This document shows, piece by piece, positions 22,964-48,467 of a DNA stretch of 64,000 nucleotides. Within the stretch, counting starts at the first letter, position 1; every line of letters starts with the position of its first letter. Made by a program: the position numbers and the translations under genes. The stretch comes from Frankineae bacterium MT45 (GTDB taxonomy: Bacteria; Actinomycetota; Actinomycetes; Mycobacteriales; Jatrophihabitantaceae), in the NCBI GenBank assembly GCA_900100325.1, contig LT629697.1, positions 3,283,423-3,347,422 on the forward strand, given 5' to 3'. The notes beneath the pieces were generated by a model. It was not told the DNA's origin. It ran no database searches and was given only the letters and a program-made list of their open reading frames with translations.

Positions 22964-22973
22964 CTGCGTCCAG

Positions 22974-24428: not shown

Positions 24429-24447
24429 GGCTGCGTGGTCAGTCCTC

Positions 24448-25227
24448 TCACATGCTCGCGTTTGCGGTGGCCGCAGAGAGGCCGAGGTCTCCGGAGCGCC
24501 CGGAGGTGATGAGCTCGACCAGCTGACTCGTCGAACTGTTCTTGATCTCCACCTCCGCCGCGATCCGGCCGAGGAACAAGGCGTCGGCCCGGTCACAGAC
24601 CTCCATGACGTCGTTCATGTTGTGCGAGATGAGCACAACCCCGACGCCGGAGTCGGCAAGGCGCCGGACGAGGTCGAGCACCTGGCGCGTCTGGGCGACA
24701 CCGAGGGCTGCGGTCGGCTCATCCAGGAAGACGACCTGTGATTTCCAGAGCGCGGCCTTGGCGATCGCTACCGTCTGCCGCTGCCCACCGGAGAGGCTGG
24801 CGACGAGCTGGCGGACGGACTTGACGGTGCGCACCGAGAGGCTGGCCAGCGTCTCGCGGGCCTGCATCTCCATGGTGGACTCGTCGATCGAACCGAACTT
24901 GGTCTTCAGCTCGCGACCCAGGAACATGTTCTGCACGATGTCGAGGTTGTCGCAGAGGGCGAGGTCCTGGTACACGATCTCGATACCCAACGCCGAGGCG
25001 TCACGCGGGCCGTGGATGTTCACCGGCTTCCCCTCGAAGAGGAACTCCCCGTTGTCGACCGGGTAAATACCCGCGATGCACTTGACCAGGGTGGACTTGC
25101 CGGCACCGTTGTCACCGATGAGGGCCGTCACCTCCCCCGGATAGACGGCGAAGTCCACGTCATGCAACACATGGACCGGGCCAAAGCTCTTGTTAACTCC
25201 GCGCAACTGCAGAATCGGATCAGGCAT
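24448..25227 (-). CDS. Sugar ABC transporter ATP-binding protein, single domain
   Basis: This is a 259-aa ABC ATPase with Walker A GDNGAGKST, signature LSGGQRQTVAIAKAAL and Walker B VVFLDEPTAALG. Carbohydrate importers of this class often have two fused ATPase domains of about 500 aa; this one has a single domain, like the FrcA type, and would act as a homodimer. The ATG at 25227 follows the lipoprotein gene after a 178-nt gap that carries a hairpin. It ends 19 nt before the permease start. Confidence 0.9.
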   Translation of the reverse strand: MPDPILQLRGVNKSFGPVHVLHDVDFAVYPGEVTALIGDNGAGKSTLVKCIAGIYPVDNGEFLFEGKPVNIHGPRDASALGIEIVYQDLALCDNLDIVQNMFLGRELKTKFGSIDESTMEMQARETLASLSVRTVKSVRQLVASLSGGQRQTVAIAKAALWKSQVVFLDEPTAALGVAQTRQVLDLVRRLADSGVGVVLISHNMNDVMEVCDRADALFLGRIAAEVEIKNSSTSQLVELITSGRSGDLGLSAATANASM

Positions 25228-25335
25228 CGAAACTCCTCGCCTTGAAGAAGGTCTTGTGGTTCCCGTTGTACACCCGCGCCGCTCCAACCGAGCGCATACC
25301 CGTCGGTGTCACAGAGTCGGGTCGAAACGCAGAGC

Positions 25336-25366
25336 GGCGGGGACCGGAATCACTCCGATCCCCGCC
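25336..25366 (-). terminator. Stem-loop between the sugar-binding lipoprotein gene and its ATPase gene
   Basis: A 13-bp stem with one mismatch (25336-25348 with 25354-25366) surrounds a 5-nt loop. It lies 40 nt downstream of the lipoprotein stop on the minus strand, without a T-tract. Such intercistronic hairpins are known to stabilise upstream mRNA or partly stop transcription, so that the binding protein is made in excess over the membrane parts. That role is inferred here. Confidence 0.6.
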
Positions 25367-25405
25367 ACTCAGCTTGAAGCAGCTCCTGAAGTCAGGAGAT
25401 CTTGA

Positions 25406-26518
25406 TTAGGAGATTCCAGCCTTGGTGCAAGCCGCGGCGTAGGCCGGCGTGCACAGGTCCGAGGCCTTGACGAACCCGTCGCTGACCGGCTTGGAGATGT
25501 TGGAGATGTTGACCGCAACCGGGGTCAGCAGCACCGACGGGACGTCGCGGTTGCCCGTGGCGTCGTGGACGGTGCCCGTGGTCTTGCCGGTCTCGCCCTT
25601 GAGGAGCGAGATCGCCAGGGCCGCGAGGGCGTTGGCCTCATCCGCGATCGGCTTGTAGACCGTCATGCACTGGTCGCCGGCGAGGATGTTCTGCAGACCC
25701 TGGACGGTGGCGTCCTGTCCGGTGACCGGAACCTGCAGGTGGTTCTTCTTGAGCACGGTGATCGCGGCGTTGCCGAGGCCGTCGTTGGCGGCGAGAACGC
25801 CGTCAACCTTGCCGCCGGCAGCGGTGAGCAGCTGCTCGAAGATGGTGCCGGCCTGCGCGTTGTCCCAGTTCGGAACGCTCTGGTTGCCGGCCTTCACGAG
25901 GGTGCCGTTCGCGTACAGCGGGTCGAGGACCGAGTTGTAGCCCTGCGCGAAGAGCGTCGCGTTGTTGTCCGTCGGCGAGCCGTTGAGCTCGATGACCTTC
26001 GCCTTGGGGATGTTCTTGGCCTTGATGCAGGAGACCAGACCCTGGCCCTGCAGCTCGCCGACCTTCACGTTGTCGAAGGAGACGTAGTAGTCGGCCGTAC
26101 CACCGAGGGTCAGTCGGTCGTAGTCGATCGTCTTGACGCCAGCCGCCTTGGCCGTCGCCTCGATCTGCGCGCCGGTGGTGCTGTCCAGGTTGACGATCGC
26201 GAGGACGGAGACGCCCTCGGTGATCATCGACTGGGCGATGGTGATCATCTTGCTCTTGTCACCGAGTGCGTTCTGAATGTCAGCCTGGACGCCGGCGGTC
26301 GCAAAGGCCTTCGTCAGCAGCGGCTTGTCGAAGCTCTCCCAGCGAGCCGAGGACTGCGTGTCCGGCAGGATCACGCCGACCTTGCCCTTGACGGTGCTTC
26401 CCGACGAGGAGGCTGAACCTGTACTGCTCGAACTCGACTTCTTGCTGCTGCTGCATCCGGTGAGCACGAGTGCTACGGCCAGACCACCAGTGACGAGGCC
26501 AATGACGCTCTTGCGCAT
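25406..26518 (-). CDS. Sugar ABC transporter substrate-binding lipoprotein (XylF-like)
   Basis: This is a 370-aa protein of the periplasmic-binding-protein type I class (D-xylose/ribose group). The N-terminus is a lipoprotein signal, MRKSVIGLVTGG then lipobox LTGC with Cys22. A Ser/Lys-rich linker follows before the fold begins at VKGKVGVILPDTQSSARWE. The ATG at 26518 is preceded by a purine-rich site. Divergence from xylA makes xylose the best guess. It is the first gene of the leftward operon and should be the most expressed, given the hairpin after it. Confidence 0.9.
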   Translation of the reverse strand: MRKSVIGLVTGGLAVALVLTGCSSSKKSSSSSTGSASSSGSTVKGKVGVILPDTQSSARWESFDKPLLTKAFATAGVQADIQNALGDKSKMITIAQSMITEGVSVLAIVNLDSTTGAQIEATAKAAGVKTIDYDRLTLGGTADYYVSFDNVKVGELQGQGLVSCIKAKNIPKAKVIELNGSPTDNNATLFAQGYNSVLDPLYANGTLVKAGNQSVPNWDNAQAGTIFEQLLTAAGGKVDGVLAANDGLGNAAITVLKKNHLQVPVTGQDATVQGLQNILAGDQCMTVYKPIADEANALAALAISLLKGETGKTTGTVHDATGNRDVPSVLLTPVAVNISNISKPVSDGFVKASDLCTPAYAAACTKAGIS

Positions 26519-26593
26519 GGGCACTACCGCCTTTCGCGGGGCATGTGATCGACCCCAGCCACGGGGCGTGCTGGGTCTTCGATCAGGAATGAA

Positions 26594-26610
26594 TGTTGTG
26601 GGCGACAACA
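26594..26610. promoter_or_regulatory. Palindromic operator candidate in the divergent xylose control region
   Basis: There is an inverted repeat of TGTTGT and ACAACA arms with a 5-nt spacer, 76 nt upstream of the lipoprotein start. It lies in the 264-nt region between the leftward transporter operon and rightward xylA. A second near-palindrome, AACCAATTTGTT, is at 26644-26655. AT-rich palindromes of this size suit ROK/XylR repressors. Which of the two ROK proteins binds is unknown. Confidence 0.5.
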
Positions 26611-26782
26611 TATCCCACGAGTCGGTGACCCAGACAACACTGCAACCAATTTGTTATACGAAGGATTCATTCATGAAACGCAAGGCTTCGATATGTTCAG
26701 AGGAACCCAACCTTGCTCCACGCCCTCCCGGGGGATACTGTGGGCTCATTAGTTGAGTCCCTAAACAAAAGAAGGCGACACC

Positions 26783-27973
26783 ATGACGCAGACCCCCACC
26801 AAGGCCGACAAGTTCAGTTTCGGAATGTGGACGGTCGGGTGGCGAGCGCAGGATCCGTTCGGAGACGCGACCCGCCCCGCCCTTGACCCCGTCGAGTCGG
26901 TTCACCGGCTGGCCGAACTCGGCGCCTGGGGCATCACCTTCCACGACAACGACCTGATTCCCTTCGACGCCACCGCGGCGGAGCGGGACCGGCTGATCGC
27001 CCGCTTCAAGGACGCTCTCAACGAGACCGGCCTGCAGACGCCGATGCTCACCACCAACCTCTTCACCCACCCGGTCTTCAAGGACGGCGGCTTCACCAGC
27101 AACGATCGATCGGTGCGCCGATTCGCGCTGCGCAAGGTGATCCGCAATATCGATCTGGCCGCCGAACTAGGCGCAAAAACCTACGTGTTCTGGGGCGGCC
27201 GCGAGGGCGCCGAGTACGACGGCGCCAAGGACGTCGGCGCCGCACTGGACCGCTATCGCGAGGGGATCGACCTGCTCGCCTCCTACGTGAAGGAGCGCAA
27301 CTACGACCTGCGCTTCGCGCTGGAGCCGAAGCCGAACGAGCCCCGCGGCGACATCCTGCTGCCGACGGTCGGGCACGCCCTCGCCTTCATCGCCGAGCTC
27401 GAACACGGTGACATGGTCGGGGTCAACCCCGAGGTCGGGCACGAGCAGATGGCCGGGCTGAACTTCTCGGCCGGCATCGCGCAGGCGCTCTGGTCGAAGA
27501 AGCTCTTCCACATCGACCTCAATGGCCAGCGGGGCATCAAGTTCGACCAGGACCTGGTCTTCGGTCACGGCGACCTGATCAACGCGTTTTTCCTGGTCGA
27601 TCTCCTCGAGAACGGAGCCGTCGACGGCGGCCCGACCTACGACGGCCCGCGTCACTTCGACTACAAGCCCTCGCGCACCGAGGACATCACCGGCGTCTGG
27701 GACTCGGCCGCGGCCAACATGAGCATGTACCTGATGCTCAAGCAGCGTGCCGCCGCCTACCGGGCCGACCCGGAGGTGATCGAGGCGCGTGAGCAGGCGG
27801 GTGTGAGCACGCTCAGCACCCCGACCCTCAACCCGGGCGAGACGCTCGCGGATCTCCTCTCCGACACCGGCGCGTTCGAAGACTTCGACGCCACCAAGGC
27901 CGCCGAGCGGGGCTTCGGTTTCGTCCGCCTGCACCAGTTGGCGATGGAGCACATCCTCGGAGAGCGCAACTAG
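26783..27973 (+). CDS. xylA: Xylose isomerase
   Basis: This is a 396-aa isomerase of the short actinobacterial (class I) type, converting D-xylose to D-xylulose with two divalent metals. The catalytic His is in [10 protein letters not shown]. The metal ligands are in [17 protein letters not shown], with further ligands in [15 protein letters not shown] and HIDLNGQ. An AAGAAGG ribosome site precedes the ATG. It begins the rightward xylA-xylB-ROK operon and stops 2 nt before xylB. Confidence 0.96.
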
Positions 27974-27975
27974 CG

Positions 27976-29400
27976 ATGGAGTTGGTCGCCGGCGTCGACT
28001 CCTCGACGCAGTCGTGCAAGGTCGTGATCCGCGACGCCGCCAGCGGCGAGCTGCTCCGGGAGGGGCGGGCCGCCCATCCGGACGGCACGGCCATCGACCC
28101 CGAGCACTGGTGGGTGGCGCTGCAGATGGCGATCACCGACGCCGGCGGTCTGCAGGACGTAGCCGCGGTCTCGGTCGGCGGCCAGCAGCACGGGATGGTC
28201 TGCCTTGACTCCAGCGGCGAGGTGATCCGCGACGCCCTGCTCTGGAACGACACCCGATCCTCGGGCGCGGCGCTGGACCTCATCGGCGAACTAGGCGGGG
28301 CGCGGGCCTGGGCCGAGGCGGTCGGCTCAGTTCCGGTCGCCTCGTACACGGTCACCAAGCTGCGCTGGCTGCAGGACCACGAACCGGCGAACGCGGCCCG
28401 CACCGCCGCCGTCTGCCTCCCCCACGACTGGCTCACCTGGCGACTGGCCGGGAGTCCGGGCCTGGAGGCGCTCACCACCGACCGCGGTGACGCCAGCGGC
28501 ACCGGGTATTGGTCGCCGGCTAGCGGCGAGTACCGCCACGACATCGTCGACCTGGCCCTCGGGCACGACGTGCGACTGCCCCGGGTGTTGGGACCGGCCG
28601 AATCGGCCGGCCAGTTGGCACCGGCACTGAGCGGCGCCGCTCCCGCCCTGCTCGGGCCGGGCAGCGGTGACAATGCCGCCGCCGCGCTCGGCCTCGGCGC
28701 GGTGGAGGGGGACGTCATCATCTCCATCGGCACCTCCGGCGTCGTCTGCGCGGTGAGCTCGACCCCGGTGGCCGACGCCAGTGGCACGGTCTCGGGTTTC
28801 GCCTCGGCAACCGGCAGCTTCCTACCCCTGATCGCCACCCTGAACGCGGCCCGGGTGCTGGATGCCACGGCGGAACTGCTCGGGGTCGATCACGAGGAGC
28901 TCTCCCGTCTCGCCCTCAGCGCCGAGCCCGGCGCCGGCGGACTCACCATGATTCCTTACCTGGAGGGCGAGCGGACGCCCAACCGCCCCGACTCCACCGG
29001 CGCCCTGCACGGCATGCGGATGGCCAACATGACGCCGGCCAACCTGGCCCGGGCCGCCGTCGAGGGGCTGCTCTGCGGCCTGGCCGACGGCATGGATGCC
29101 CTGGTTTCACAGGGTGTTCAGATCGACCGGGCCATCCTCATCGGCGGCGGCGCGAAGTCGGAGGCGGTCTGCCGGATCGCTCCCAGCATCTTCGGCCGGC
29201 CGGTGATGGTGCCGGCCCCGGGCGAGTACGTAGCCGACGGCGCGGCCCGGCAGGCGGCCTGGGTGCTGAACCGCAGCCGCGACGAATCCGCCGCACCGCC
29301 GTCCTGGGTGCGGGCCGGATCCCGGACATTTGAAGGAGAAGCGAGCAAGCAGGTGCGTGATCGCTACGCCGAGGTGCGCGACCTCACCGCGAATCGTTGA
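27976..29400 (+). CDS. xylB: Xylulokinase
   Basis: This 474-aa FGGY kinase phosphorylates D-xylulose for entry into the pentose phosphate pathway. The N-terminal phosphate loop is [14 protein letters not shown] and the substrate segment is [11 protein letters not shown] followed by ALLWNDTRS. The second ATP-site segment is [14 protein letters not shown]. It starts 2 nt after xylA and is clearly cotranscribed. A ROK regulator gene follows after 58 nt. Confidence 0.95.
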
Positions 29401-29458
29401 TCCGCGAACTATCTCGGATGTGCTGGCATTGTCGGCCCGCACCCAGGAGACTGTTGTG

Positions 29459-30634
29459 ATGACCGCACCAGCCGGACAGCACACCATCCGTGAGCACAAC
29501 CTGGCTCTGGTCATGCGCAGCATCGCCGACGGACCGCGCCGCTCACGGGCCCAACTGGCGGAGGCCACCGGACTGACCCGGGCCACCATCTCAGGGCTGG
29601 TGGACGAGCTGATCACCAGCGATTTACTGATCGAACTCGAACCGGACCGGAGTTCGCGCGGGCGCCCCGGCAGCCCGATCACGCTCAACCCGAACGGGCC
29701 GGCCGGGCTCGGCATCGAGGTGAACGTCGACTACACCAGTGCCTGCGTGGTTGACCTCACCGGCGAGGTCCGCTCGCAGCGCACCGAACTGTTGGACAAC
29801 CGGAAGGTCAGCCCCGAGCAGGGAATGCGCCACGCCGTCACGCTGGCCAACGAAGTGCGGGACGAGGTCGGCAAGCTCGGGATCGCCGGCGCGACCGTCG
29901 CACTCCCCGGACTGGTCGACTCTGACGGCCTGCTGAGGCGTGCACCCAACCTGCCGCGCTGGCAGGACCTCGACGTGGCCGGTGAGTTCAGCCAGCTCCT
30001 CGGCCTCGATGTGCAGGTCGACAACGAGGCGAACCTGGCCGCCCTGGCCGAGCTCTGGTACGGCGAACCCCGCGATGACTTCGTCCTCGTGTCGGCCGAC
30101 ATCGGCATCGGCGCCGGAATCGTGCTGAACCGCCGTCTTTATAGAGGTGTTCGCGGTCGGGCCGGCGAGCTGGGGCACGTCGTGGTGGATCCGGCCGGGC
30201 CGCCCTGCGGCTGCGGTTCCAACGGCTGCCTCGAGCAGTTGGCCGGGCAGGAAGCGTTGCTCCGCGCGGCGGGGGTGACGGTCGGTGACATCGGAACCTC
30301 GGTCGCCGACCCGCACGGCGCCGCGGAGGAACTGAGCCTGCGGGCCCGCAGCGGTGACGGGCGCACCCTGAAGGCGCTGACCGACGCCGGCTCCGCCCTA
30401 GGCGTGGCGCTGGCCGGAATGGTGAATCTGCTGGACATTCCGGCGATCATCCTCGGCGGCATCTACGCCGACCTCGGCGATTGGCTGATGCCGACCATCG
30501 AGGCGGAGCTGCGTCGCCGGGTACTCGCCTCGAACTCGCACGTCGAGCTGAGCCTGGCCACCCTCGGCTCCGGTGCGGCCGTACGGGGCAGCGCCGGCAG
30601 CGTGGTCGCCGGGTTGATAGCCAAGCCCCACTGA
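29459..30634 (+). CDS. ROK family transcriptional regulator (XylR-like)
   Basis: This is a 391-aa ROK repressor with N-terminal winged helix (RSRAQLAEATGLTRATISGLVDEL) and zinc motif CGCGSNGCLE in the sugar-binding fold. Its place behind xylA-xylB suggests a xylose repressor. An AGGAGA ribosome site ends 8 nt before the ATG at 29459; a GTG one codon earlier is also possible. The frame is open into xylB, but those upstream Met codons have no role. With the other ROK gene, two such proteins flank one sugar regulon. Confidence 0.9.
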   Translation: MTAPAGQHTIREHNLALVMRSIADGPRRSRAQLAEATGLTRATISGLVDELITSDLLIELEPDRSSRGRPGSPITLNPNGPAGLGIEVNVDYTSACVVDLTGEVRSQRTELLDNRKVSPEQGMRHAVTLANEVRDEVGKLGIAGATVALPGLVDSDGLLRRAPNLPRWQDLDVAGEFSQLLGLDVQVDNEANLAALAELWYGEPRDDFVLVSADIGIGAGIVLNRRLYRGVRGRAGELGHVVVDPAGPPCGCGSNGCLEQLAGQEALLRAAGVTVGDIGTSVADPHGAAEELSLRARSGDGRTLKALTDAGSALGVALAGMVNLLDIPAIILGGIYADLGDWLMPTIEAELRRRVLASNSHVELSLATLGSGAAVRGSAGSVVAGLIAKPH

Positions 30635-30684
30635 TCCAGAGCCCCACTAAGCGGCGATGGACCCTAAGCCAACCCTCGAAACGG

Positions 30685-33189
30685 CTAGGCGGCCAACTCG
30701 CTGATAGAGCGAGCGGGAGGCTTTAGGGCCGCAATGACTGTGGACGCTGCCGCCGCCAACAGGGCAAGAAGCGTCAACCGCTGGTAGGGAATCGTCAGCA
30801 TGAAGTCAACCCCCTCAGTTCGCGCCAGTCGAAGGCCCAAACAGATCCCTAACCCGAATCCGAGCGCCGTACCGACGAGACTGAGAACAAGAGCCTGTCG
30901 GGCAAGGATCGCGCGTTGGCTACGTCCGGAGACCCCGAGAGCAAACATGCTCTGGAAGAACGGTCGTGCATCCTCGGAGAGCGCCAACACGGCAAGACTT
31001 GTCCCGACTACCACCAGGCAGCAGGACGCCAGAACGACCAGTCGCCAATCGAGCGGGAACGGCAGCAGTGCTACGACAGGAAACAGGACCTCGTCAGCGG
31101 CAATGCCATGGGCTTCGGCCACGCCTCCGATCCGATCCCCAAGACCGGGGTCAATTCGTCCAGGGATCCAGGCGAAATAGGCATCAATCCGGGTCGGGAT
31201 GTGATTGACCAATCCAAAGGACTGAGGCACCACCACCTGAGCGTCTATGTGAGCCTCATCGACTGATCCGTCCCGAGCGATCGCGGCCAGCGGAATGGCT
31301 CGAACGGGCGCGGCGCTGGTGCCTCCAAGGGTCTGCGGGACGGCGGTCAATCCGCCTGCGCGGACCGAGTCCTTGAGGACGACCGCGGTGCCGGCGGAGA
31401 TAGCCTGCCACTCTCGAGCCGTGGGAGGACGGCCGGCGACCGCCTCAAATCCGGCCCGATCGCTAACGACATCGATCGATGCAGAGGATCCCGACACGTC
31501 CTGCGCCTGCCAGCGAAGCCCGCTAAGCAGATTCTGTGGAGGATTCGGGCCAGCCAACAGGGTGGAGATCTGGGCTACCTTGGCGTCTGGTCCGGCGGCC
31601 GCAACAACGGACCGCGTCAGTTCCGCAGAGCTGTCGACGCGTCGAAGAGGAAGCTCGGCGAACCCTGGATGCACGGTGCCGACATTTGAGAGTTCAGCAC
31701 CAGCGAGTTTCGTGTCGTAGTACACGAGCTCTGCGCTGGCGGCACCCATAGCAAGCAGCGCCACGGCCATCGCGATCACCGGGCGCGTGCGGTCACGAAC
31801 CAGTTGCCTCAAGGCGATCCTCGTCCGGTGGCCGCCGACCCGGTCGGCGGCTGCGGAGAGAGCACGCAGCAGGGCCAATACCAACACAATGCCACCGACA
31901 CCGGCCACTCCAAGGGCAAGCCAGGATCCAGCACCGCCGATTCTTACGCCAGCCAGAGCGCCACCGAACAGCATCGCCGCGCCGACGATGCTCGGCCAAG
32001 CGCCAGCTGACGGAGTCGGTGGCCGTCCGTCGAACGACGCCACACCCCGTCGTGCGACACGCGCGGGTATCCATGCAGCTAAGACCGCTACTGCGGTTAC
32101 AAGAAATACCGTGACGCAGGCAACCGAAAGGGATGCTGGATCAGCGTTCAACTGATGCCCGGCGATACCGCGAATAGACGAAGCGACCGTCCAAGAGAGT
32201 GCAGATGCCAGAACAACCCCCAAGGTCGCACCCCAGAAGCTCGCAGACAGCGCTGCGGCACGAGCTGACCAAACGATCGTAGAGCCACGAACGCCGATAG
32301 CAAGCAAGATCGCGAATTGACGAGAACTTCGCCTTACCCGTACTACGGTCGCCATGGATGTAAGTGTCGCCACCAGGACCATGCCCGGAATTAGTACCAC
32401 CATGAAATTGGTGCGAAAGATCCTGGCATCGGCCGATTCGACGAGTGCCTTGCGGGTCTGTACCCCGACACCAACCTCGATCGCCTCGCGTGCAAGCTGC
32501 TCAACCGTAGCGGCCGACCCGCTAACGAGATAGTTGGTCTGATAAACAGTGTTGGCGTCCAGAGATGTTGTTATCAGCCGAATGCTCCTCGGCAAGATGA
32601 TTCGCTCGGCCGCGAAGCGCGACTGGTCCAGAAATATGCCGACGATGCGTTGCGGCTGGTGCACACTCTCCAACCTGACCGTCGATCCGACAACCCACTT
32701 GTACCGACTCGCGAGGGCAGCCGAAATCGCGGCGTCGCCCGCCTTAACGGGCCAACTACCTCGCTGCAACGTGTCGAAAGATCTGAAGACCGGCAATGAC
32801 CAGTTGCCGGTCATCACTTCCACGTTCCGACGCAGACTACCCACGTAGACGTTAGCCCGGCCAATGAGATATGACTCGACTTCGACCGGCGTAGCTAGAG
32901 ACGCCGTAAGATCCGCGATCTCAGATCCAGACCGTCGGCTACCCTCAGCCTCTTCTACTCCGACCTTCGCATCGAGTCCGCTGACGATCGCCTGCGCAGA
33001 GCCCATCCTGTGATTCGCAGTTACCTCGGGGTTGGTGCCGAGCCCGGAGACAACGAAGGTCGCGACGAAAATCAGGATTGCCGGAACCGCGAACAACAGA
33101 AGTGGTGCGATCATTCGAGTGCCGCGGCCGATGACCACCGACCGCGCAATGCGTGGGATAAGGCGCCACTGTTGGCTAGCGGTGGTCAC
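30685..33189 (-). CDS. MacB/FtsX-type ABC transporter permease
   Basis: This is an 834-aa protein with the double FtsX layout. A first helix lies near MIAPLLLFAVPAILIFVATFVV, then a large extracytoplasmic domain and three helices, a middle helix pair, a second extracytoplasmic domain and three C-terminal helices. The GTG at 33189 has GGAGG 7 nt upstream, which decides the start; it overlaps the ATPase gene by 14 nt. Such permeases export peptides, lipoproteins or drugs, or sense the envelope. The region is richer in A/T than its flanks. Partner genes are the ATPase at 33176 and the I36-like protein at 33898. Confidence 0.87.
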   Translation of the reverse strand: MTTASQQWRLIPRIARSVVIGRGTRMIAPLLLFAVPAILIFVATFVVSGLGTNPEVTANHRMGSAQAIVSGLDAKVGVEEAEGSRRSGSEIADLTASLATPVEVESYLIGRANVYVGSLRRNVEVMTGNWSLPVFRSFDTLQRGSWPVKAGDAAISAALASRYKWVVGSTVRLESVHQPQRIVGIFLDQSRFAAERIILPRSIRLITTSLDANTVYQTNYLVSGSAATVEQLAREAIEVGVGVQTRKALVESADARIFRTNFMVVLIPGMVLVATLTSMATVVRVRRSSRQFAILLAIGVRGSTIVWSARAAALSASFWGATLGVVLASALSWTVASSIRGIAGHQLNADPASLSVACVTVFLVTAVAVLAAWIPARVARRGVASFDGRPPTPSAGAWPSIVGAAMLFGGALAGVRIGGAGSWLALGVAGVGGIVLVLALLRALSAAADRVGGHRTRIALRQLVRDRTRPVIAMAVALLAMGAASAELVYYDTKLAGAELSNVGTVHPGFAELPLRRVDSSAELTRSVVAAAGPDAKVAQISTLLAGPNPPQNLLSGLRWQAQDVSGSSASIDVVSDRAGFEAVAGRPPTAREWQAISAGTAVVLKDSVRAGGLTAVPQTLGGTSAAPVRAIPLAAIARDGSVDEAHIDAQVVVPQSFGLVNHIPTRIDAYFAWIPGRIDPGLGDRIGGVAEAHGIAADEVLFPVVALLPFPLDWRLVVLASCCLVVVGTSLAVLALSEDARPFFQSMFALGVSGRSQRAILARQALVLSLVGTALGFGLGICLGLRLARTEGVDFMLTIPYQRLTLLALLAAAASTVIAALKPPARSISELAA

Positions 33190-33904
33190 TGCGGCGCCTC
33201 CGTGTGAGCTCACCCTCAAACGCTCCGTCGACGAGACGGAGCCGCCGATCCGCAGCTATGGCTACCACATCGTTGTGCGTGCAGACCAGCGTCGCGATAC
33301 CCAACTCGCAGACGTCACGAAGTACCTGGATGACCACCTCTGTGTTCGCCGAGTCGAGCGCGCCCGTTGGCTCATCCGCGAGCAACAAGCGCCGCTCTCC
33401 GACAACCGCACGCGCGATAGCCGCACGCTGGCGCTCCCCGCCGCTGACCTGTCCCGGGTAGCGGTTGCCCAAGCTCAGAATTCCGACTACTTCGAGTTTC
33501 TCTGCCGCGGCGAGAGCCGCCACCTTGCGGGTCGCCCCTGCCGCCTCCAGCGGTAACGCTACGTTCTCGAGAATCGTCAGATCTGGCAGCAGATTGATGT
33601 TCTGAAAAACAAAGCCGATCTTGTGAAGACGCAGGTTCGCCAGATCATTTGCCGAGTGCCGGGCCAGGTCCATTCCGAGGACCTCGACCAGTCCCGACGT
33701 CGCGGAGTCGATGCCAGACAGGATGTTGAGCAGTGTCGACTTTCCCGACCCACTCGACCCGACGACCGCTACGAATTCGCCTGCCGCGAGATCAAGGTCT
33801 ATACCCCGCAAGGCAGAGACATCGGACTGTCCATCGCGGAAAACGCGAGTCGCGCCTCGTACTCGAACCACGGGCCAATCCGGCTCCCGTGGTGCGACTA
33901 GCAC
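33176..33904 (-). CDS. MacB/LolD-type ABC transporter ATPase
   Basis: This is a 242-aa ATPase with Walker A GSSGSGKST, signature VSGGERQRAAIARAV and Walker B LLLADEPTGALD. The GALDS wording is typical of the LolD/MacB exporter branch. The GTG start at 33904 overlaps the stop of the secreted-protein gene by 7 nt, and its end overlaps the permease start by 14 nt. All three proteins should therefore be made together. Confidence 0.92.
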   Translation of the reverse strand: MLVAPREPDWPVVRVRGATRVFRDGQSDVSALRGIDLDLAAGEFVAVVGSSGSGKSTLLNILSGIDSATSGLVEVLGMDLARHSANDLANLRLHKIGFVFQNINLLPDLTILENVALPLEAAGATRKVAALAAAEKLEVVGILSLGNRYPGQVSGGERQRAAIARAVVGERRLLLADEPTGALDSANTEVVIQVLRDVCELGIATLVCTHNDVVAIAADRRLRLVDGAFEGELTRRRRSDHR

Positions 33905-34281
33905 GCTCGACTGTCTGGAAAGATTTGAAGCGAGCTAGCCTTGTCGTTCTCGACACTACCGACCCAGCTAACGTAGACGTTCACCGGCATGCAGTGCGAC
34001 GTTCCAGTTTCATTTCCATCTGTCCACCACTTTGCGGTCTTCACATAGTAGTTCGTCCACGACGACATTCGATCGTTGAACGACGTCAGATTCTCGTTGT
34101 CAGTTGTGAATCCGAGCCATTCTCTAAGGAAGTATGCGCCGCCAGCGTTCAGATCTGTGTAGAGGCAGAGTTCGTGCGACGCACATCCTGGCGGCACAGC
34201 TTCAGCATCAGTCGTCGCGATCGCTGCTTGTGCCGACACAATGATTGCGACAGCACCGATCATTCGGCTTACTTTGTTCAC
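33898..34281 (-). CDS. Secreted peptidase-inhibitor (I36) family-like protein
   Basis: This is a 127-aa protein with a Sec signal peptide (MIGAVAIIVSAQAAIATTDAEA, cut after about residue 28). A mature part of about 100 aa follows with four Cys, starting CASHELCLYTDLNAGG and ending DSRAC. The C...LCLY...GG pattern and the aromatic WTNYYVK segment resemble the peptidase inhibitor I36 (SMI-like, beta/gamma-crystallin fold) proteins of Streptomyces. That is a family resemblance, not proof of inhibition. An AGGGGAGG site 7 nt upstream fixes the GTG start at 34281. The first gene of its operon, it is coupled to an ABC exporter. Confidence 0.75.
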   Translation of the reverse strand: MNKVSRMIGAVAIIVSAQAAIATTDAEAVPPGCASHELCLYTDLNAGGAYFLREWLGFTTDNENLTSFNDRMSSWTNYYVKTAKWWTDGNETGTSHCMPVNVYVSWVGSVENDKASSLQIFPDSRAC

Positions 34282-34367
34282 GTGGGCCCCTCCCCTAAAG
34301 CCGCTGCACTTTGCGGCACCTGCGCTATGCACCTTACCCAACGAGGGGAGATAAGCGCGCAGACTTC

Positions 34368-34384
34368 TGAGGAGTTACACCTCA
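34368..34384. promoter_or_regulatory. Near-perfect 17-bp palindrome upstream of the I36/ABC operon
   Basis: TGAGGAGTTACACCTCA has matching 5-bp outer arms and matching inner pairs. It lies 84 nt upstream of the secreted-protein start, in a 177-nt gap bounded by valS. Its size and place suit a dimeric repressor site. A small hairpin (34300-34317) lies in the presumed leader just upstream of the ribosome site. No regulator gene is adjacent. Confidence 0.45.
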
Positions 34385-34458
34385 CCCGTCTGAACTGTTG
34401 CGATGTCTAAATCGCTGTACATCGAACCATAGGAGGCATGCCGCCGAATACCGCGACG

Positions 34459-37050
34459 CTACCGCAGGGCACTAAGCGCGGCGGTGATCCGCTCAATGTC
34501 GGCCCTGGCCGCGTCCAGCCGACCCTGCACCTTGGCGATGACCGGCGGCGGGGCCTTGGCGGTGAAGGCCTCATTGGCCAGCTTCGCCTCGTTGGTGGCC
34601 AGTTCCTTCTCGGCCGCGGCCAGCGCCTTGGTGAGGCGGGCGCGCTCAGCGTCGACGTCGATGGCCGTCGAGAGGTCGAGCTCGATCAGTACCCCGGACG
34701 CGGTGGTGAGGGACGCGGTTGCCGCGAACTCGGCCGCCGGTTCGGTGAGGCGCAGCAGTGAGGCGATCGCCGGTTGGGCGGAGCCAGCACCGGTGATGCG
34801 CCCCGGCACGGCCTTGGACGGCGGGAGCCCCTGATCGGAGCGGAAGCGCCGCACCTCGGTGACGACACTCTGCACGGTCGCGATCTCCGCCTCGGCTCCG
34901 GCGTCGGCCCGGGTCGGGTCGGCCACCGGCCAGGGCGCCACCACGATCGACTCGCCACCGGTGAGGGAGATCCAGAGCTCCTCGGTGACGAACGGGATGA
35001 TCGGGTGCAGCATCTTCAGCAGCGCACTGAGCACCTCCCCCAGTACCCGGCGCGTCGCCTCGGCGCCCTCGCCGCTGAAGGAGAGCTTGGCCAGCTCCAC
35101 GTACCAGTCGCAGACCTCATCCCAGGCGAAGTGGTACAGCAGGTCGGCGACCTTGGCGAACTCGTAGTTCTCGTAGAGGTCGTCGACCTCGGCGATGACC
35201 GCGTTGAGCCGCGAGATGATCCAGGCGTCGGCTCCGGTGAGTTCGGCCGGCAGCTCGCCGGCGACGGTGGCGCCGTTCATCAGCGCGAAGCGGGTCGCGT
35301 TCCAGAGCTTGGTGGTGAAGCTGCGCGAGGCCTGCACCCAGTCCTCGCCGATCGGCACGTCGGTGCCCGGGTTCGCCCCGCGGGCCATCGTGAAGCGCAC
35401 CGCGTCGGCACCGTAGGCGTCGATCCACTCCAGCGGGTCGACGACGTTCCCCTTTGACTTACTCATCTTCGCGCCGAACTGATCGCGGACCAGACCGGTC
35501 AGCACGATGGTGTGGAAGGGCACCTCATCCATCGCGTAGAGCCCGAACATCATCATCCGGACGACCCAGAAGAAGATGATGTCGTAGCCGGTGAGGAGCA
35601 CATCGGTGGGGTAGAACTTCTTGAGGTCCGCACTCTGCTCAGGCCAACCCAGCGTTGAGAAGGGCCAGAGAGCCGAGGAGAACCAGGTGTCGAGGACGTC
35701 CGGGTCCTGCACCCAACCCTCCGGCGCGGTCTCGCCCGGGCCGAAGCAGGCCTGCTCCCCGGTCGGCGAGTACCAGACCGGAATTCGGTGCCCCCACCAC
35801 AGCTGGCGGCTGATGCACCAGTCATGCATGTTGTCGGTCCAGCTGAAGTAGCGCGGGGCCAGCGACGCCGGCTCGATCTTGGTCCGCCCGTCACGCACGG
35901 CATCGCCGGCGGCCTGACTCAGCGACTCGACCTTCACCCACCACTGCAGCGACAGTCTCGGCTCGATGACCGCGCCGCAGCGCGAGCAGTGCCCCACCGA
36001 ATGGACGTACGGGCGCTTCTCGGCGACGATCCGCCCCTCGGCCCGCAGCGCCTCGACCACAGCGGCACGGGCGGCGAAGCGATCCAACCCGAGGAACGGC
36101 CCGGGCACGGTGACGATGGCTTGCTCGTCCATGATCGTCAGCATCGGCAGGCCGTGCCGCTGGCCGATGGCGAAGTCGTTGGGGTCGTGGGCTGGGGTGA
36201 CCTTCACGGCGCCGGTCCCGAAGCTCGGGTCGACGTGGGCGTCGGCGACGACCGGGATCGAACGGTCGGTCAGCGGGAGACTGATCATCGTGCCGACCAG
36301 GTGGGCGTAGCGCTCGTCCTCGGGGTGCACCGCGATGGCCGTGTCACCGAGCATCGTCTCGGCCCGGGTAGTGGCCACCACGATCGAGTCGTCGCCGTCG
36401 CCGTAGCGGATCGAGACGAGTTCCCCGTCGTCCTCGGAGTGCTCGACCTCGGCGTCGGAGAGGGCGGTGAGGTTCACCGGGCACCAGTTGATGATCCGCT
36501 CGGCCCGGTAGATCAGCCCGTCGTCGTAGAGGCGCTTGAAGATCGTCTGGACGGCATCCGAGAGCCCGTCGTCGAGGGTGAAGCGCTGCCGCGACCAATC
36601 GACGCCGTCACCCAACCGGCGCATCTGGGCCAGGATGCGGCCGCCGTAGGTGTTGGTCCACTCCCAGGCCTTGCCCATGAACTCGTCACGGGTGTACTCG
36701 AAGCGCGACTTCCCCTCCGTCTCCTTCAGGTGCCGCTCGACCAGCGTCTGGACCGCGATACTGGCGTGGTCCATGCCGGGGAGCCAGAGCACCTCGAAGC
36801 CCTGCATGCGCTTGCGGCGGGTGAGGGCGTCCATGAGGGTGTGCCCAAGAGCGTGGCCGACGTGCAGGCTGCCGGTGACGTTCGGCGGGGGGATGACGAT
36901 GGTGTACGGCGGCTTCTCGCTGTCGGGGTCAGCCGTGAAGTAGCCCCGCTCGACCCACCGCTCGTACATCGGCCCCTCTACCTCCGAAGGCACGAAGTGC
37001 GTCGGAAGTTCGGTGGAGGCGGAGGTGGGTGCGCTTGCTGCTTCGGTCAC
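34459..37050 (-). CDS. valS: Valyl-tRNA synthetase
   Basis: This is an 863-aa class I synthetase that charges tRNA-Val and edits Thr errors. The HIGH-type motif is [12 protein letters not shown] and the KMSKS motif is [14 protein letters not shown]. The editing domain is the segment with [15 protein letters not shown]. The C-terminus is the usual coiled-coil arm ([21 protein letters not shown]). The gene stands alone here; in many actinobacteria it precedes folC. Confidence 0.97.
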
Positions 37051-37118
37051 CGCTGCATTCTACGGACCCGCGGATATTGAGGTGACGCCTCGCAGTGCCG
37101 CCCGGCATCATCGTTGCT

Positions 37119-37967
37119 ATGGCGATCGACAACGGCTTGAACCTGACCAGTGACCCGTCGGCGATCTGCTCGATTCTCGACGCGATCGTGGCCGCCGAGC
37201 CGGTGATCGGGACCACGCTGGGAACGCTGGTGAACGTGCTGGCCGATGACGCGGAATCGACGCCCCACCCGACTGCCCACCCAACTGCTTGGTGTGCCCA
37301 CCTCGACCTGGAAGGGCCGGCTGCCAGTCGGCCGGTGGCTGCGCGCTCCGGTGACCGCACCCACGTGGTGGTCTTCGGGGAGTGGCCGGCGAGCGCACTC
37401 CCCGCGCTGGCCGCGGCCCTGCGGGAGCTGCCGCAACTGCGGGGCATCGTCGGTGAACCGCCCGTCGTCGAGCGACTCGACGAGCTCATCGGCCGGTCAG
37501 GTGTTCGCGTCGACGAGCGGCTCTTCCGCCTCGACGAGCTCACCCCGCCGCAGGTGCCGGGGTCAGCCCAGCGGGCCGGCGCTACGGAGCGCGAACTGCT
37601 GATCGCCTGGTACGAAGCCTTTGGGGTGGATGCCGGGCTCCCTGGATTCGACGCCGCCGCTCTTTCCGACCTCATGCTGCGGACCGGGAGCGTCTGGATC
37701 TGGCGCGATGAGGGCGGCCGCCCGGTGAGCATGGCTGGTCGCCGCCCGCTGACCCATGGGAGCGCACGGATCGGGCCGGTCTACACGCCGGATGCGGCTC
37801 GTGGACACGGTTACGGAAGCGCGGTGACGGCGGCCGCAACCACCGAGATCCTGCAGCAGGGTGCCATTCCGGTGCTCTTCACCGATCTGGCCAACCCGAC
37901 CTCGAACGCGATCTATCAGCGCCTCGGCTACCGACCGGTGGCCAGCCGCCTCAACCTGACGTACTGA
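37119..37967 (+). CDS. GNAT family N-acetyltransferase with an extra N-terminal domain
   Basis: This is a 282-aa protein. The C-terminal half (from about GATERELLIAW) is a GNAT fold. It has the acetyl-CoA loop segment ARIGPVYTPDAARGHGYGSAV and the closing FTDLANPTSNAIYQRLGYRPV. The N-terminal 140 residues resemble a degenerate GNAT-like domain without the CoA loop. The acceptor is unknown. The ATG at 37119 is preferred; an ATG eight codons upstream is possible. It is divergent from valS and converges on clpX with a 6-nt gap. Confidence 0.85.
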   Translation: MAIDNGLNLTSDPSAICSILDAIVAAEPVIGTTLGTLVNVLADDAESTPHPTAHPTAWCAHLDLEGPAASRPVAARSGDRTHVVVFGEWPASALPALAAALRELPQLRGIVGEPPVVERLDELIGRSGVRVDERLFRLDELTPPQVPGSAQRAGATERELLIAWYEAFGVDAGLPGFDAAALSDLMLRTGSVWIWRDEGGRPVSMAGRRPLTHGSARIGPVYTPDAARGHGYGSAVTAAATTEILQQGAIPVLFTDLANPTSNAIYQRLGYRPVASRLNLTY

Positions 37968-37973
37968 GCTGGC

Positions 37974-39257
37974 TCAGGCCGACTTCTCGCGGCGCTCGCG
38001 CTTGGGGGCAGCGTCGCGGGGAACGAGGGTCGGGTAGACGTGATCGAGCACCGTGTCCCGGTTGATGACCACACGAGCGACATCCTCACGCGAGGGGAGC
38101 TCGTACATCACCGAGAGGAGGACCTCCTCCATGATGGCGCGCAGCCCACGGGCACCGGTGCCCCGCATGACGGCCTGATCGGCGATGGCTCCGAGAGCGT
38201 CCTCGTCGAACTCCAGCTCGACATTGTCGAGCTCGAAGAGCTTCGCGTACTGCTTGACCAGCGCGTTGCGTGGCTCGGTGAGGATCTGGACCAGCGCGTC
38301 GCGGTCGAGGGGCCGCACCGAGGTGATGACCGGAAGACGGCCGATGAACTCAGGGATGAGCCCGAACTTGATCAGGTCCTCCGGCATGACCTCACCGAAG
38401 ATGTCTCGGGTGTCGCGCTCGAACTTGGTCTTGAGCTCAGCCCCGAAGCCGAGGCCCTTCTTGCCGGCCCGCGACTCGATGATCGTGTCGAGTCCGGCGA
38501 AGGCGCCACCGACGATGAAGAGGACGTTCGTGGTGTCGATCTGGATGAACTCCTGGTGCGGGTGCTTGCGGCCACCCTGCGGCGGGACCGAGGCCGACGT
38601 GCCCTCAAGAATCTTCAGCAGCGCCTGCTGGACGCCCTCACCGGAGACGTCGCGCGTGATCGACGGGTTCTCGGCCTTACGGGCGATCTTGTCGACCTCG
38701 TCGATGTAGATGATGCCGGTCTCGGCCCGCTTGACGTCGTAGTCAGCGGCCTGGATGAGCTTCAGCAGGATGTTCTCGACGTCCTCACCGACGTAGCCGG
38801 CCTCAGTCAGCGCCGTAGCGTCGGCGATGGCGAAGGGGACGTTCAGCATTCGGGCCAGCGTCTGGGCCAGCAGCGTCTTGCCGGAGCCGGTCGGGCCAAG
38901 CAGCAGGATGTTCGACTTCGCGAGCTCGACGGCGGAGTCGGCCGAGCGGGGCTTCCCCTCACCGACCTGGACGCGCTTGTAGTGGTTGTAGACCGCGACC
39001 GCGAGGGTCCGCTTGGCCTGGTCCTGGCCGACGATGTAGCTGTTCAGGAAATCGAAGATCTCCTTGGGCTTCGGCAGCTCGTCGAAGCTGAACTCGCTGG
39101 TCTCGGCGAGTTCCTCCTCGATGATCTCGTTGCAGAGGTCGATGCACTCGTCACAGATGTATACGCCGGGGCCGGCAATCAATTTCTTGACCTGTTTCTG
39201 GCTCTTTCCGCAGAAAGAGCACTTGAGCAGATCGCCTGTCTCGCCGACACGTGCCAC
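37974..39257 (-). CDS. clpX: ATP-dependent Clp protease ATP-binding subunit ClpX
   Basis: This is a 427-aa AAA+ unfoldase. The N-terminal zinc-binding domain has [11 protein letters not shown] and CDECIDLC. Walker A is [11 protein letters not shown] and Walker B is [11 protein letters not shown]. The pore and sensor regions match the family. It feeds substrates to ClpP1P2, encoded just upstream. The 172-nt gap to clpP2 holds a long hairpin (39373-39413), so clpX probably has its own promoter too. Confidence 0.97.
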
Positions 39258-39372
39258 GCGTGAATCGTCCCCTCTAGAAGCAACTAAGCCTGATGCGGCT
39301 CGGCCGCCTTCGATGTACCTCGGACTTGAAAATCGGGCCGCTACGGCCCATCAACTGGACGCTACCCGCAAA

Positions 39373-39413
39373 CCGCGCTGAAGTCTTGGAGAAATGCCAT
39401 TTCTTCAGCGCGG
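39373..39413 (-). terminator. Hairpin between clpP2 and clpX
   Basis: An 11-bp perfect stem (39373-39383 with 39403-39413) encloses a 15-bp near-palindrome, AGAAATG-C-CATTTCT, at 39390-39404. It starts 17 nt after the clpP2 stop on the minus strand. It lacks a clear T-tract. It may be a terminator, an mRNA-stabilising structure or a protein site that separates clpP1P2 from clpX expression. Confidence 0.6.
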
Positions 39414-39429
39414 CCCGCCTGGGTCATAT

Positions 39430-40098
39430 TTACGTATTGTCCAGCTTCCGGGTGGTGATGACCTGGTCGATGATGCCGTAGTCCTTGGCCTGCGCGGCGG
39501 TGAAGATCTTGTCGCGCTCGACGTCGGCCCGGACGGTCTCGATCGACTGGCCGGTGTGTCGGGCCAGGATCTCCTCCATCAGATCACGCATGCGCAGGAT
39601 CTCCTTGGCCTGGATGTCCAGGTCGGAGATCTGCATGGCACCCTCGGTACCGCCTGAGGGCTGGTGAATCAGCACCCGCGACTGCGGCAGCGCGTACCGC
39701 TTCCCCTTGGTGCCGGCGGCCAGCAGGACGGCGGCGGCCGAGGCGGCCTGACCCATGCAGTACGTCTGCACCTCGGGGCGGATGTACTGCATCGTGTCGT
39801 AAATGGCCGTCAGCGCGGTGAAGGAACCGCCCGGCGAGTTGATGTAGATCTGGATGTCGCGGTCGGGGTCAGTGGACTCCAGCACGATGAGCTGGGCCAT
39901 GACGTCGTTGGCCACCACATCGTCGATCGGCGCACCGAGGAAGATGATGCGCTCCTCGAAGAGCTTGTTGTACGGGTTGGACTCCTTGACGCCGTAGTTC
40001 GTGCGCTCGACGAAGGACGGGAGCACGTAGCGGGCGGAGGCCTCGCGGGTGCTCATGCCGGTCGGAGTGAGGCCGAAAGGGCTGATGTAGTTCGACAT
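39430..40098 (-). CDS. clpP2: ATP-dependent Clp protease proteolytic subunit ClpP2
   Basis: This is a 222-aa serine protease subunit. The catalytic Ser is in [16 protein letters not shown], His in VLIHQPSGG, and Asp in ERDKIF. In actinobacteria ClpP1 and ClpP2 form a mixed two-ring barrel that is active only together; the adjacent clpP1 fits this. The ATG at 40098 lies just past the clpP1 stop. An ATG five codons upstream (40113) would overlap clpP1 and is the alternative. Confidence 0.95.
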
Positions 40099-40099
40099 G

Positions 40100-40735
40100 T
40101 CAGACACTCTCATTCGCAGGGGCGATGCCGCCGGGAACCTCGCTGGCGCGCGTCACGATGTGGTCAACGAAACCGTAATCCAGCGCCTCCTTGGCGGTGA
40201 ACCAGCGGTCGCGGTCACCGTCGGCGGTGATCTTCTCCACCGTCTGTCCGGTGTGCAGGGCGGTGATCTCCGACATCTCGACCTTGGTCAGGTTCCACTG
40301 CTCGGCCTGGATGCGGATGTCCGAGGCGGTGCCGCCGAGGCCGGCCGAACCCTGGTGCATCAGGATGCGGGCGTGCGGGAGGGCGTAGCGCTTCCCCTTG
40401 GCTCCGGCCGAGAGGAGGAACTGCCCCATCGACGCGGCCAGCCCCATCGCCCAGGTGGCGACGTCACACGGGATGAGCTCCATGGTGTCGAAGATGGCCA
40501 TACCGGCCGTCACCGAGCCACCCGGCGAGTTGATGTAGAGGTTGATGTCGCGGGTGTCGTCCTCAGCTGAGAGGAGCAGCAGCTGCGCGCAGATCTGGTT
40601 CGCGATCGTGTCGTCCACCGGCTGGCCGAGGAAAATGATGCGCTCGCGGAGCAACCGGTCATAGACCGAGTCGTTGAGGTTCATACCGCCACCGGCGCTG
40701 CGGCGCATCTCGGGGATGGACTGGAAACTACTCAC
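40100..40735 (-). CDS. clpP1: ATP-dependent Clp protease proteolytic subunit ClpP1
   Basis: This is a 211-aa serine protease subunit with catalytic Ser in [12 protein letters not shown], His in [10 protein letters not shown] and Asp in DGDRDRWF. The start used is GTG at 40735 ([12 protein letters not shown]), which gives the short propeptide typical of actinobacterial ClpP1. The frame is open 53 codons further upstream, but that stretch looks non-coding. The promoter should lie in the 218-nt gap before tig, where a ClgR-like site and a terminator hairpin are visible. Confidence 0.93.
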
Positions 40736-40835
40736 GGCGTCCGGACCTTCTTTCGCAGGAGAGAGCAGGAATTTCAATTTGGTGCTACCGACCCTAGTGG
40801 TCGACGGTCGCGCAGCGCCGTCCGACGCCACTTGT

Positions 40836-40850
40836 TTCGCTGTTGGCGGA
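40836..40850. promoter_or_regulatory. Possible ClgR-type site upstream of clpP1P2
   Basis: TTCGCTGTTGGCGGA resembles the ClgR operator pattern (CGC-Y-N4-GCG) known upstream of clpP1P2 in Corynebacterium and Streptomyces. It lies about 100 nt before the clpP1 start. The match is imperfect in the outer bases. Just beyond, at 40852-40878, a 9-nt unit CAGACCGAY is repeated about three times. Confidence 0.35.
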
Positions 40851-40879
40851 TCAGACCGACCAGACCGATCAGACGCAGA

Positions 40880-40926
40880 ACGGGCGGGTGCCACGGGGAA
40901 TCATCTCCCCCGCGGCTCCCGCCCGT
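40880..40926 (-). terminator. Terminator hairpin after tig
   Basis: Two 19-nt arms (40880-40898 and 40908-40926) pair with two mismatches around a 9-nt loop. The hairpin begins 28 nt beyond the tig stop on the minus strand. It is very GC-rich and without a T-run, as usual for this type of genome. It separates tig from clpP1P2. Confidence 0.7.
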
Positions 40927-40953
40927 AGGCTGCGGTCCGGTTGGCGGCCTGGA

Positions 40954-48381: not shown

Positions 48382-48467
48382 GCGGGTCCGTCTACGGCCG
48401 CGAGCCGCCGGGTGATGGGTCACAGACGCGGGTGCGTCTACGGCCGCTACCCGCCGGGTGGTGGGTC
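48382..48467. repeat. Imperfect 40-bp direct repeat at the 3' end of the HNH gene
   Basis: Two copies (48382-48421 and 48428-48467) differ at only a few positions, with a 46-bp period. The right copy includes the last codons and stop of the DUF222/HNH gene; the left copy lies beyond the stop. It looks like duplication of the gene's tail. Confidence 0.8.

What the first reader, a model, noticed from the sequence alone, without database searches (positions are those of the whole stretch)
30685..34281. A/T-richer island: secreted I36-like protein with a coupled MacB-type ABC exporter
The secreted protein, ATPase and permease genes overlap (7 nt and 14 nt), so their products are made in step. The island is less GC-rich than its surroundings: the 60-nt line at 32281 has 33 G/C, that at 20281 has 46. 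A 17-bp palindrome precedes the operon. A Sec-exported inhibitor-like protein tied to its own MacB-type pump suggests a toxin/immunity, bacteriocin-resistance or envelope-stress device. No regulator or modification enzyme is adjacent.
Basis: partly seen in the sequence, partly recalled or inferred. Interest (0 to 1): 0.55.

Follow-up and report, generated by a model that had tools for sequence, protein, structure and literature searches.

The report
Imported operon: secreted crystallin plus ABC
A small stretch of apparently foreign DNA gives an actinobacterium three linked genes: a secreted protein that looks like a calcium-binding crystallin, and an ATP-driven membrane machine of a kind that usually works with a partner outside the membrane; the pairing looks unusual but its job is not yet shown.

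Summary
A 3.8-kb segment (30640-34457) carries, on the - strand, a secreted protein, a MacB/LolD-class ATPase and an 834-aa FtsX permease, overlapping by 7 and 14 nt. The sister species (87% DNA identity) has 8 nt at that site. GC3 (0.60-0.70 against 0.82-0.92) and codon usage are foreign to the host. The 17-nt palindrome is not above chance.

The "I36 inhibitor" is better described as a beta-gamma-crystallin: two N/D-N/D-x-x-S/T-S calcium motifs, clade profile matching clostrillin (E 8e-8). The permease looks YbbP-like (about ten helices, two large outside domains; Type VII ABC), so "exporter" is unlikely for a protein with its own signal peptide.

The same trio, with the same 7-nt overlap, occurs in a Pseudonocardiales MAG of another family (36-60% identity). 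Most I36 genes are solo: 78 of 80 windows lack a MacB-class ATPase. In 19 of 20 distant ABC-FtsX loci a PadR repressor precedes the ATPase; here the crystallin does.

Best reading: a horizontally acquired Type VII ABC with a dedicated secreted crystallin partner acting at the envelope. Partnership and function are inferred, not shown.

The parts
30640..34457 (.). Inserted segment: absent from the sister species, where 8 nt lie between the same flanks
   Evidence: blastn of the window against sister locus L153; GC, GC3 and codon adaptation
33898..34281 (-). Secreted beta-gamma-crystallin / I36-like protein, 127 aa, 4 Cys (33, 39, 97, 127)
   Evidence: ORF (start trimmed to GTG 34281); PF03995 26.8 bits against cut-off 21.1; crystallin matches in the PDB; Cys positions
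34198..34281 (-). Likely Sec signal peptide (residues 1-28, ends ...TTDAEA)
   Evidence: hydrophobic stretch at residues 4-22; cleavage site read by eye, no signal-peptide program was available
34060..34077 (-). First calcium motif NDRMSS (residues 69-74)
   Evidence: motif definition N/D-N/D-X-X-S/T-S from PMC3551895
33931..33948 (-). Second calcium motif NDKASS (residues 112-117)
   Evidence: motif definition from PMC3551895
34287..34296 (-). Ribosome-binding-like AGGGGAGGGG before the secreted gene
   Evidence: sequence read
33176..33904 (-). ABC ATPase, 242 aa, with Walker A GSSGSGKST, signature SGGERQRAAIARA, Walker B LLLADEPTGALD
   Evidence: PF00005 7.5e-31; best NCBIfam matches LolD, FtsE, MacB, all below their cut-offs; motifs read from the translation (motif names recalled)
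30685..33189 (-). FtsX-type permease, 834 aa, about ten helices, outside domains near residues 49-261 and 490-716
   Evidence: PF02687, two stretches; hydropathy; profile match to LolC/E, MacB, YtrF, FtsX structures
33898..33904 (-). 7-nt stop/start overlap GTGCTAG between secreted gene and ATPase
   Evidence: GTGTTAG at the same junction in L009
30645..30653 (+). 9-bp direct repeat CACTAAGCG near the left border (second copy 34470-34478, inside the 3' end of valS)
   Evidence: about 3.6% of random pairs of 60-nt pieces share 9 bp or more, so weak

Best explanation
A 3.8-kb, three-gene operon was acquired horizontally and set between the convergent 3' ends of valS and a ROK gene. It encodes a secreted, cysteine-containing, calcium-type beta-gamma-crystallin (I36-family) protein and a Type VII (MacB/LolCDE/YbbAP superfamily) ABC complex. 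Proposed mechanism: Sec exports the crystallin; outside, it folds around Ca2+ and binds one or both outside domains of the ten-helix permease; ATP binding and hydrolysis by the ATPase pair move those domains, so the crystallin is an ATP-gated outside partner, as TesA is for YbbAP or EnvC/RipC for FtsEX. The likely task is at the envelope: clearing or sensing a hydrophobic or membrane-bound harmful molecule, or controlling the crystallin's binding to the wall. SHOWN: gene anatomy, the extra segment and its empty site, foreign composition, conservation of the trio and its 7-nt overlap in a second family, crystallin signature, Type VII relationship. INFERRED: gain rather than loss, disulphides, Ca2+ binding, physical partnership, ATP gating, envelope task.
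For: Same trio, same order and same 7-nt overlap in L009/L087 at only 36% (permease), 38% (secreted) and 60% (ATPase) identity, so the linkage outlived deep divergence. Clean empty site in the sister genome; GC3 and codon adaptation. Two calcium motifs and clostrillin / Protein S / M-crystallin / spherulin matches. Permease: two FtsX stretches, ten hydrophobic segments and two large outside domains, matches to LolC/E, MacB, YtrF, FtsX. 19 of 20 distant ABC-FtsX loci carry PadR directly before the ATPase; the window and L087 do not. Literature: Type VII systems typically pair with a periplasmic partner, and YbbP has ten helices with outside domains between helices 1-2 and 7-8 (PMC12646458; abstract, Results part 1 of 3 and Discussion read).
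Against: Only two trio loci are known, so co-variation between crystallin and outside domains cannot be tested. Both AlphaFold models failed (mean pLDDT 36 and 35), so neither fold was confirmed and no fold search was run. The closest other I36 proteins (L113, L114, L175) have no ABC beside them, so the crystallin does not need one. L087 keeps only one of the two calcium motifs intact. The N-terminus of the L087 protein is uncertain. YbbP did not appear among the PDB matches of the permease profile. The two halves of the permease do not align beyond shuffles.
Confidence: 0.45

Rival explanations
1. Self-protection unit: the crystallin is a secreted antimicrobial protein (some antimicrobial and killer proteins share this fold; recalled) and the ABC protects the producer, as BceAB- or YknXYZ-type transporters do against peptides.
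For: Mobile, foreign, compact operon; MacB-family transporters of Gram-positives protect against peptides and an endogenous toxin (PMC5985334, passages); one I36 relative, L184, has a sub-threshold match to the antimicrobial family MiAMP1, E 0.14.
Against: The secreted protein is not faster-evolving than the permease (39% against 36%). I36 proteins are usually solo. BceB lacks the first outside domain (PMC12646458), which this permease has. No PADLOC match beyond generic ATPase similarity.
Confidence: 0.2
2. Protease-inhibitor unit: the secreted protein is a true I36 metalloprotease inhibitor and the ABC is an envelope-stress device that happens to be co-transcribed.
For: PF03995 above cut-off in the window (26.8 bits) and in L087 (39.8 bits).
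Against: The match is weak in the window. Calcium motifs and PDB matches point to calcium-binding crystallins; no inhibitor structure is among the 14 matches. The inhibitory residues of SMPI were not looked for.
Confidence: 0.12
3. Chance neighbour: an unrelated secreted gene and an ABC pair were carried together by the same transfer and have no functional link.
For: 78 of 80 I36 windows lack a MacB-class ATPase, so the family is not tied to ABC genes.
Against: The same order and the same 7-nt overlap persist in a second family at 36-38% identity. Twenty control stretches of 20 kb contain neither a MacB-class ATPase nor an I36 domain.
Confidence: 0.13
4. Ancestral operon lost in the sister species rather than gained.
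For: A single sister genome cannot by itself tell gain from loss.
Against: Foreign GC3 and codon usage; no close permease in the other family genomes searched; no trio in the valS-folC interval of nine other family genomes.
Confidence: 0.07

Closest known systems
YbbAP-TesA (E. coli Type VII ABC with periplasmic hydrolase; PMC12646458)
   Same: Separate ATPase; single permease with about ten helices and two large outside domains between helices 1-2 and 7-8; a secreted partner encoded next door
   Different: The neighbour is a crystallin-type protein, not a GDSL hydrolase; here all three genes overlap on one strand; YbbP did not show up in the sequence-profile search
PadR-ABC-FtsX operons of the same class (L133-L152)
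   Same: Same ATPase class and same kind of permease (19-22% identity for the 12 aligned)
   Different: A cytoplasmic PadR repressor lies before the ATPase in 19 of 20; here a secreted crystallin is in that slot
Rv0986-Rv0988 / AttEFGH (PMC3982062, passages)
   Same: Horizontally acquired, GC-poor three-gene unit of an ABC ATPase, its permease and a third gene
   Different: Third protein is AttH-like, not crystallin; no sequence comparison was made here
Solo I36 / calcium-binding beta-gamma-crystallins (clostrillin, Protein S, M-crystallin, spherulin 3a)
   Same: Two half-domains, each with N/D-N/D-x-x-S/T-S
   Different: No MacB-class ATPase nearby in 78 of 80 I36 windows
BceAB / YknXYZ / MacAB of Gram-positives (PMC5985334, passages)
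   Same: MacB-superfamily ATPase and permease
   Different: BceB has one outside domain; YknXYZ and MacAB have an adaptor; none is present here. L131 shows an I36 gene upstream of an adaptor-like, ATPase, MacB set, a separate arrangement

Membership tests
Type VII (MacB superfamily) ABC complex | FtsX-type permease domain | tested here: met
   PF02687 35.1 bits against 25.5, two stretches; LolE 5.4e-12, MacB 4.4e-10, YtrF 7.7e-10 by profile
Type VII (MacB superfamily) ABC complex | ATPase of the LolD/FtsE/MacB class | tested here: met
   best NCBIfam scores LolD 205.8, FtsE 185.2, MacB 184.5, each under its equivalog cut-off
YbbAP-like | Ten helices with two large outside domains (1-2 and 7-8) | tested here: inconclusive
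   hydropathy gives 10 segments, one of them marginal, and gaps of about 213 and 227 aa; AlphaFold helix layout agrees but pLDDT is 35
YbbAP-like | TesA-like hydrolase partner | tested here: not met
   the neighbour is I36/crystallin
BceAB | No first outside domain; works with a histidine kinase | tested here: not met
   a gap of about 213 aa follows helix 1; no kinase in the inserted segment, which holds only the three genes
MacAB-type tripartite pump | Adaptor protein gene | tested here: not met
   no adaptor in the inserted segment
Peptidase inhibitor family I36 | PF03995 above the curated cut-off | tested here: met
   26.8 against 21.1 bits
Peptidase inhibitor family I36 | Inhibits metalloproteases | not testable with these tools
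   needs an enzyme assay
Calcium-binding beta-gamma-crystallin | N/D-N/D-x-x-S/T-S in each Greek key | tested here: met
   NDRMSS and NDKASS in the window protein; L087 keeps one of two
Calcium-binding beta-gamma-crystallin | Two-Greek-key fold | tested here: inconclusive
   profile E 7.7e-8 to clostrillin but the model failed
Toxin/immunity or bacteriocin operon | Toxic secreted product | not testable with these tools
   needs an activity assay

The most novel reading that the evidence does not exclude
A new class of Type VII ABC machine whose dedicated outside partner is a secreted calcium-binding beta-gamma-crystallin. Its gene stands where related operons keep a PadR repressor, so control of the complex may have moved from a transcription factor inside the cell to a calcium-responsive protein outside it.
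Probability: 0.3. Interest if true: 0.65.

Novelty: new variant of a known kind. Interest (0 to 1): 0.42.

Why it matters
I36/crystallin-type secreted proteins are common (121 of 394 genomes of the class sampled), yet our paper searches found nothing linking them to an ABC complex. A conserved, overlapping gene link to a Type VII ABC gives a concrete, testable partner. It would also widen the set of outside partners known for Type VII ABC complexes. The unit left a clean empty site in a sister species, so its effect can be compared between near relatives.

Tried and rejected
Palindrome as operator or att site: rejected, not above shuffles. Border direct repeat CACTAAGCG as target duplication: weak, about 3.6% by chance; nearest tRNA gene 7.9 kb away; no integrase-like ORF seen in the segment. 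Sigma-70 promoter or terminator in the leader: none found by a simple scan. Plasmid or phage origin: permease 0 plasmid records; secreted protein 0 phage records and 16 Streptomyces plasmid records at under 60% identity, neighbours not examined; permease 0 viral contigs. Wider hunt for the trio: genome contigs with the secreted protein found nothing; with the permease alignment only L087, whose contig length (40631) and genes equal those of G033:C83; order 298, class 394 and phylum 396 genomes gave no further close permease (only 2-3 candidates per genome were scored there). Family of G033: 1 of 2 genomes, G033 itself. AlphaFold on two-sequence alignments failed for both proteins; fold searches were therefore not run. 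I36 next to a MacB-class ATPase elsewhere: only L131 and L219, both genus g85 of family f25, a different architecture. Internal duplication of the permease by sequence: not beyond shuffles. Papers: I36 with ABC transporter and permease, crystallin with FtsX and ABC transporter, I36 with Streptomyces, and the I36 family name alone returned none; PadR with FtsX gave one paper, seen only in the listing; an SMPI/crystallin search gave nothing on the matter, listing only.
Full report
WHAT IS THERE. On the - strand three ORFs follow each other: a 127-aa secreted protein (34281..33898), a 242-aa ABC ATPase (33904..33176) and an 834-aa permease (33189..30685). The first two overlap by 7 nt (GTGCTAG); the last two overlap by 14 nt if the permease starts at the GTG with a GGAGG before it.

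IT IS AN EXTRA SEGMENT. The sister species (G001; ValS 92% identical) aligns at about 87% on both sides: window 21768-30639 and 34458-41724 are continuous in L153 with 8 nt between them. So 3818 nt, 30640-34457, are extra in the window's genome. Neither a permease relative nor an I36 gene was found elsewhere in G001. Of ten other family loci around valS (L154-L163), none shows the trio downstream of valS; L163 does not reach folC. The segment is 61.0% GC, below all 1052 same-length windows outside it. GC3 is 0.60 (secreted gene), 0.70 (ATPase) and 0.66 (permease), against 0.82-0.92 in the 11 flanking genes read in frame; a twelfth, xylF, was read out of frame in that script and is dropped. Codon adaptation to nine host genes is 0.33-0.39 for the trio, and 0.56-0.74 for each host gene against the rest. 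Gain rather than loss is inferred from composition and from absence in the family.

THE SECRETED PROTEIN. Pfam gives I36 at 26.8 bits, cut-off 21.1; L087's protein gives 39.8. A signal-peptide-like start (hydrophobic stretch at residues 4-22) and four cysteines are seen. It holds two motifs of the type N/D-N/D-X-X-S/T-S, NDRMSS and NDKASS, which PMC3551895 (passages) describes as canonical Ca2+-binding motifs of beta-gamma-crystallins. Among 90 I36 ORFs in the 80 sampled windows, 13 have two such motifs, 22 one and 55 none. A profile of seven related proteins matches clostrillin (7.7e-8), Protein S, Ciona crystallin, M-crystallin and spherulin 3a; the two-sequence profile gave only 0.012. In a FastTree of 92 domains the window and L087 proteins pair with 0.66 support, inside a five-member group with L113, L114 and L175 at 0.90; the node joining the pair to L113 and L114 has only 0.38.

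THE ABC COMPLEX. The ATPase scores best against LolD, FtsE and MacB but below each equivalog cut-off. The permease has two FtsX stretches. Hydropathy shows ten segments (one marginal) and two outside domains near residues 49-261 and 490-716. A 14-sequence profile matches LolC/E, LolF, MacB, YtrF and FtsX structures; four claudin-4 entries also appear at E 0.003-0.008 and are taken as composition effects. This layout is that described for YbbP (PMC12646458; abstract, Results part 1 of 3 and Discussion read). An internal alignment of the two halves was not beyond shuffles (score 63, highest of 200 shuffles 68), so a duplication is not shown by sequence.

RELATIVES. One other locus has the trio: L009 = G033:C83, also retrieved as L087, contig QHCD01000083.1 of a Pseudonocardiales MAG. 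It has the same gene order and the same 7-nt overlap (GTGTTAG), with identities of 36% (permease), 38% (secreted) and 60% (ATPase, over 206 residues). The mature secreted part is 39% identical, the outside domains 28% and 35%, the helical parts 40-48%, so the secreted protein is not the fast partner. No further close permease appeared in 298 genomes of the order, 394 of the class or 396 of the phylum. These scans score few candidates per genome, and the genome-contig scan used only two peptide patterns, so the trio may be commoner than seen.

IS THE LINK GENERAL? No. I took 80 windows (up to 14 kb, some cut by contig ends) around I36 genes: 79 from the class search, mainly from the upper part of its list, and one from the family search. 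All 80 show I36 by my profile; only 2 (L131, L219) hold a MacB-class ATPase at phmmer E below 1e-40, and both are from one genus. Weaker ATPase matches, of other kinds or further off, lie in 7 more windows. Twenty control stretches of 20 kb had neither. L131 reads I36, unknown protein, a protein with a sub-threshold peptidoglycan-binding match, ATPase, MacB-type permease; in L219 the I36 gene is on the other strand.

THE REGULATOR SLOT. In 20 distantly related ABC-FtsX loci (L133-L152, taken from the better hits), 19 have a PadR regulator directly before or overlapping the ATPase frame; L145 does not; the window and L087 have none. PadR identity was checked by Pfam in two of them. So 'no regulator is adjacent' is a real difference: a secreted protein stands in the slot.

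HOW IT MAY WORK. Type VII complexes typically pair with a protein outside the membrane and are thought to pass mechanical force rather than substrate across it (PMC12646458). A protein with its own signal peptide does not need the ABC for export. The most economical reading is therefore a crystallin partner bound to or controlled by the permease's outside domains. This is inference by analogy; nothing here shows binding. A similar mobile three-gene unit, Rv0986-0988, is described in PMC3982062 (passages); no sequence comparison with it was made.

LIMITS. Both structure predictions failed. The order of the evidence is: segment and anatomy strong; Type VII and crystallin relationships good; partnership moderate; function weak.

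Noticed in passing
window 21764-34458, and L153-L162: The valS-folC interval is a variable site in this family: nearly empty (under 200 nt) in six of nine genomes with both genes on the fetched stretch, other genes over 1.4-2.9 kb in three, a xylose-use cluster with two ROK genes in the sister, and that cluster plus the trio in the window's genome.
   Followed up: partly
L131 5789-10459; L219 about 6000-10200: In one other genus an I36 gene sits near a separate adaptor-like, ATPase, MacB set, same strand in L131 and opposite strand in L219.
   Followed up: partly
L009 320-388: The secreted gene of the Antarctic MAG has a ribosome-site-like stretch and ATG in a different frame upstream of the open frame, so its N-terminus as deposited is doubtful.
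   Followed up: no
L113 2910-3425, L114 2202-2714, L175 near 6005-6400: Closest solo relatives of the secreted protein; all carry two calcium motifs and none has an ABC beside it.
   Followed up: partly
window 48447-49808: ORF of 453 aa whose C-terminal part looks like the HNH-type domain of actinobacterial DUF222 proteins (recalled, not searched).
   Followed up: no
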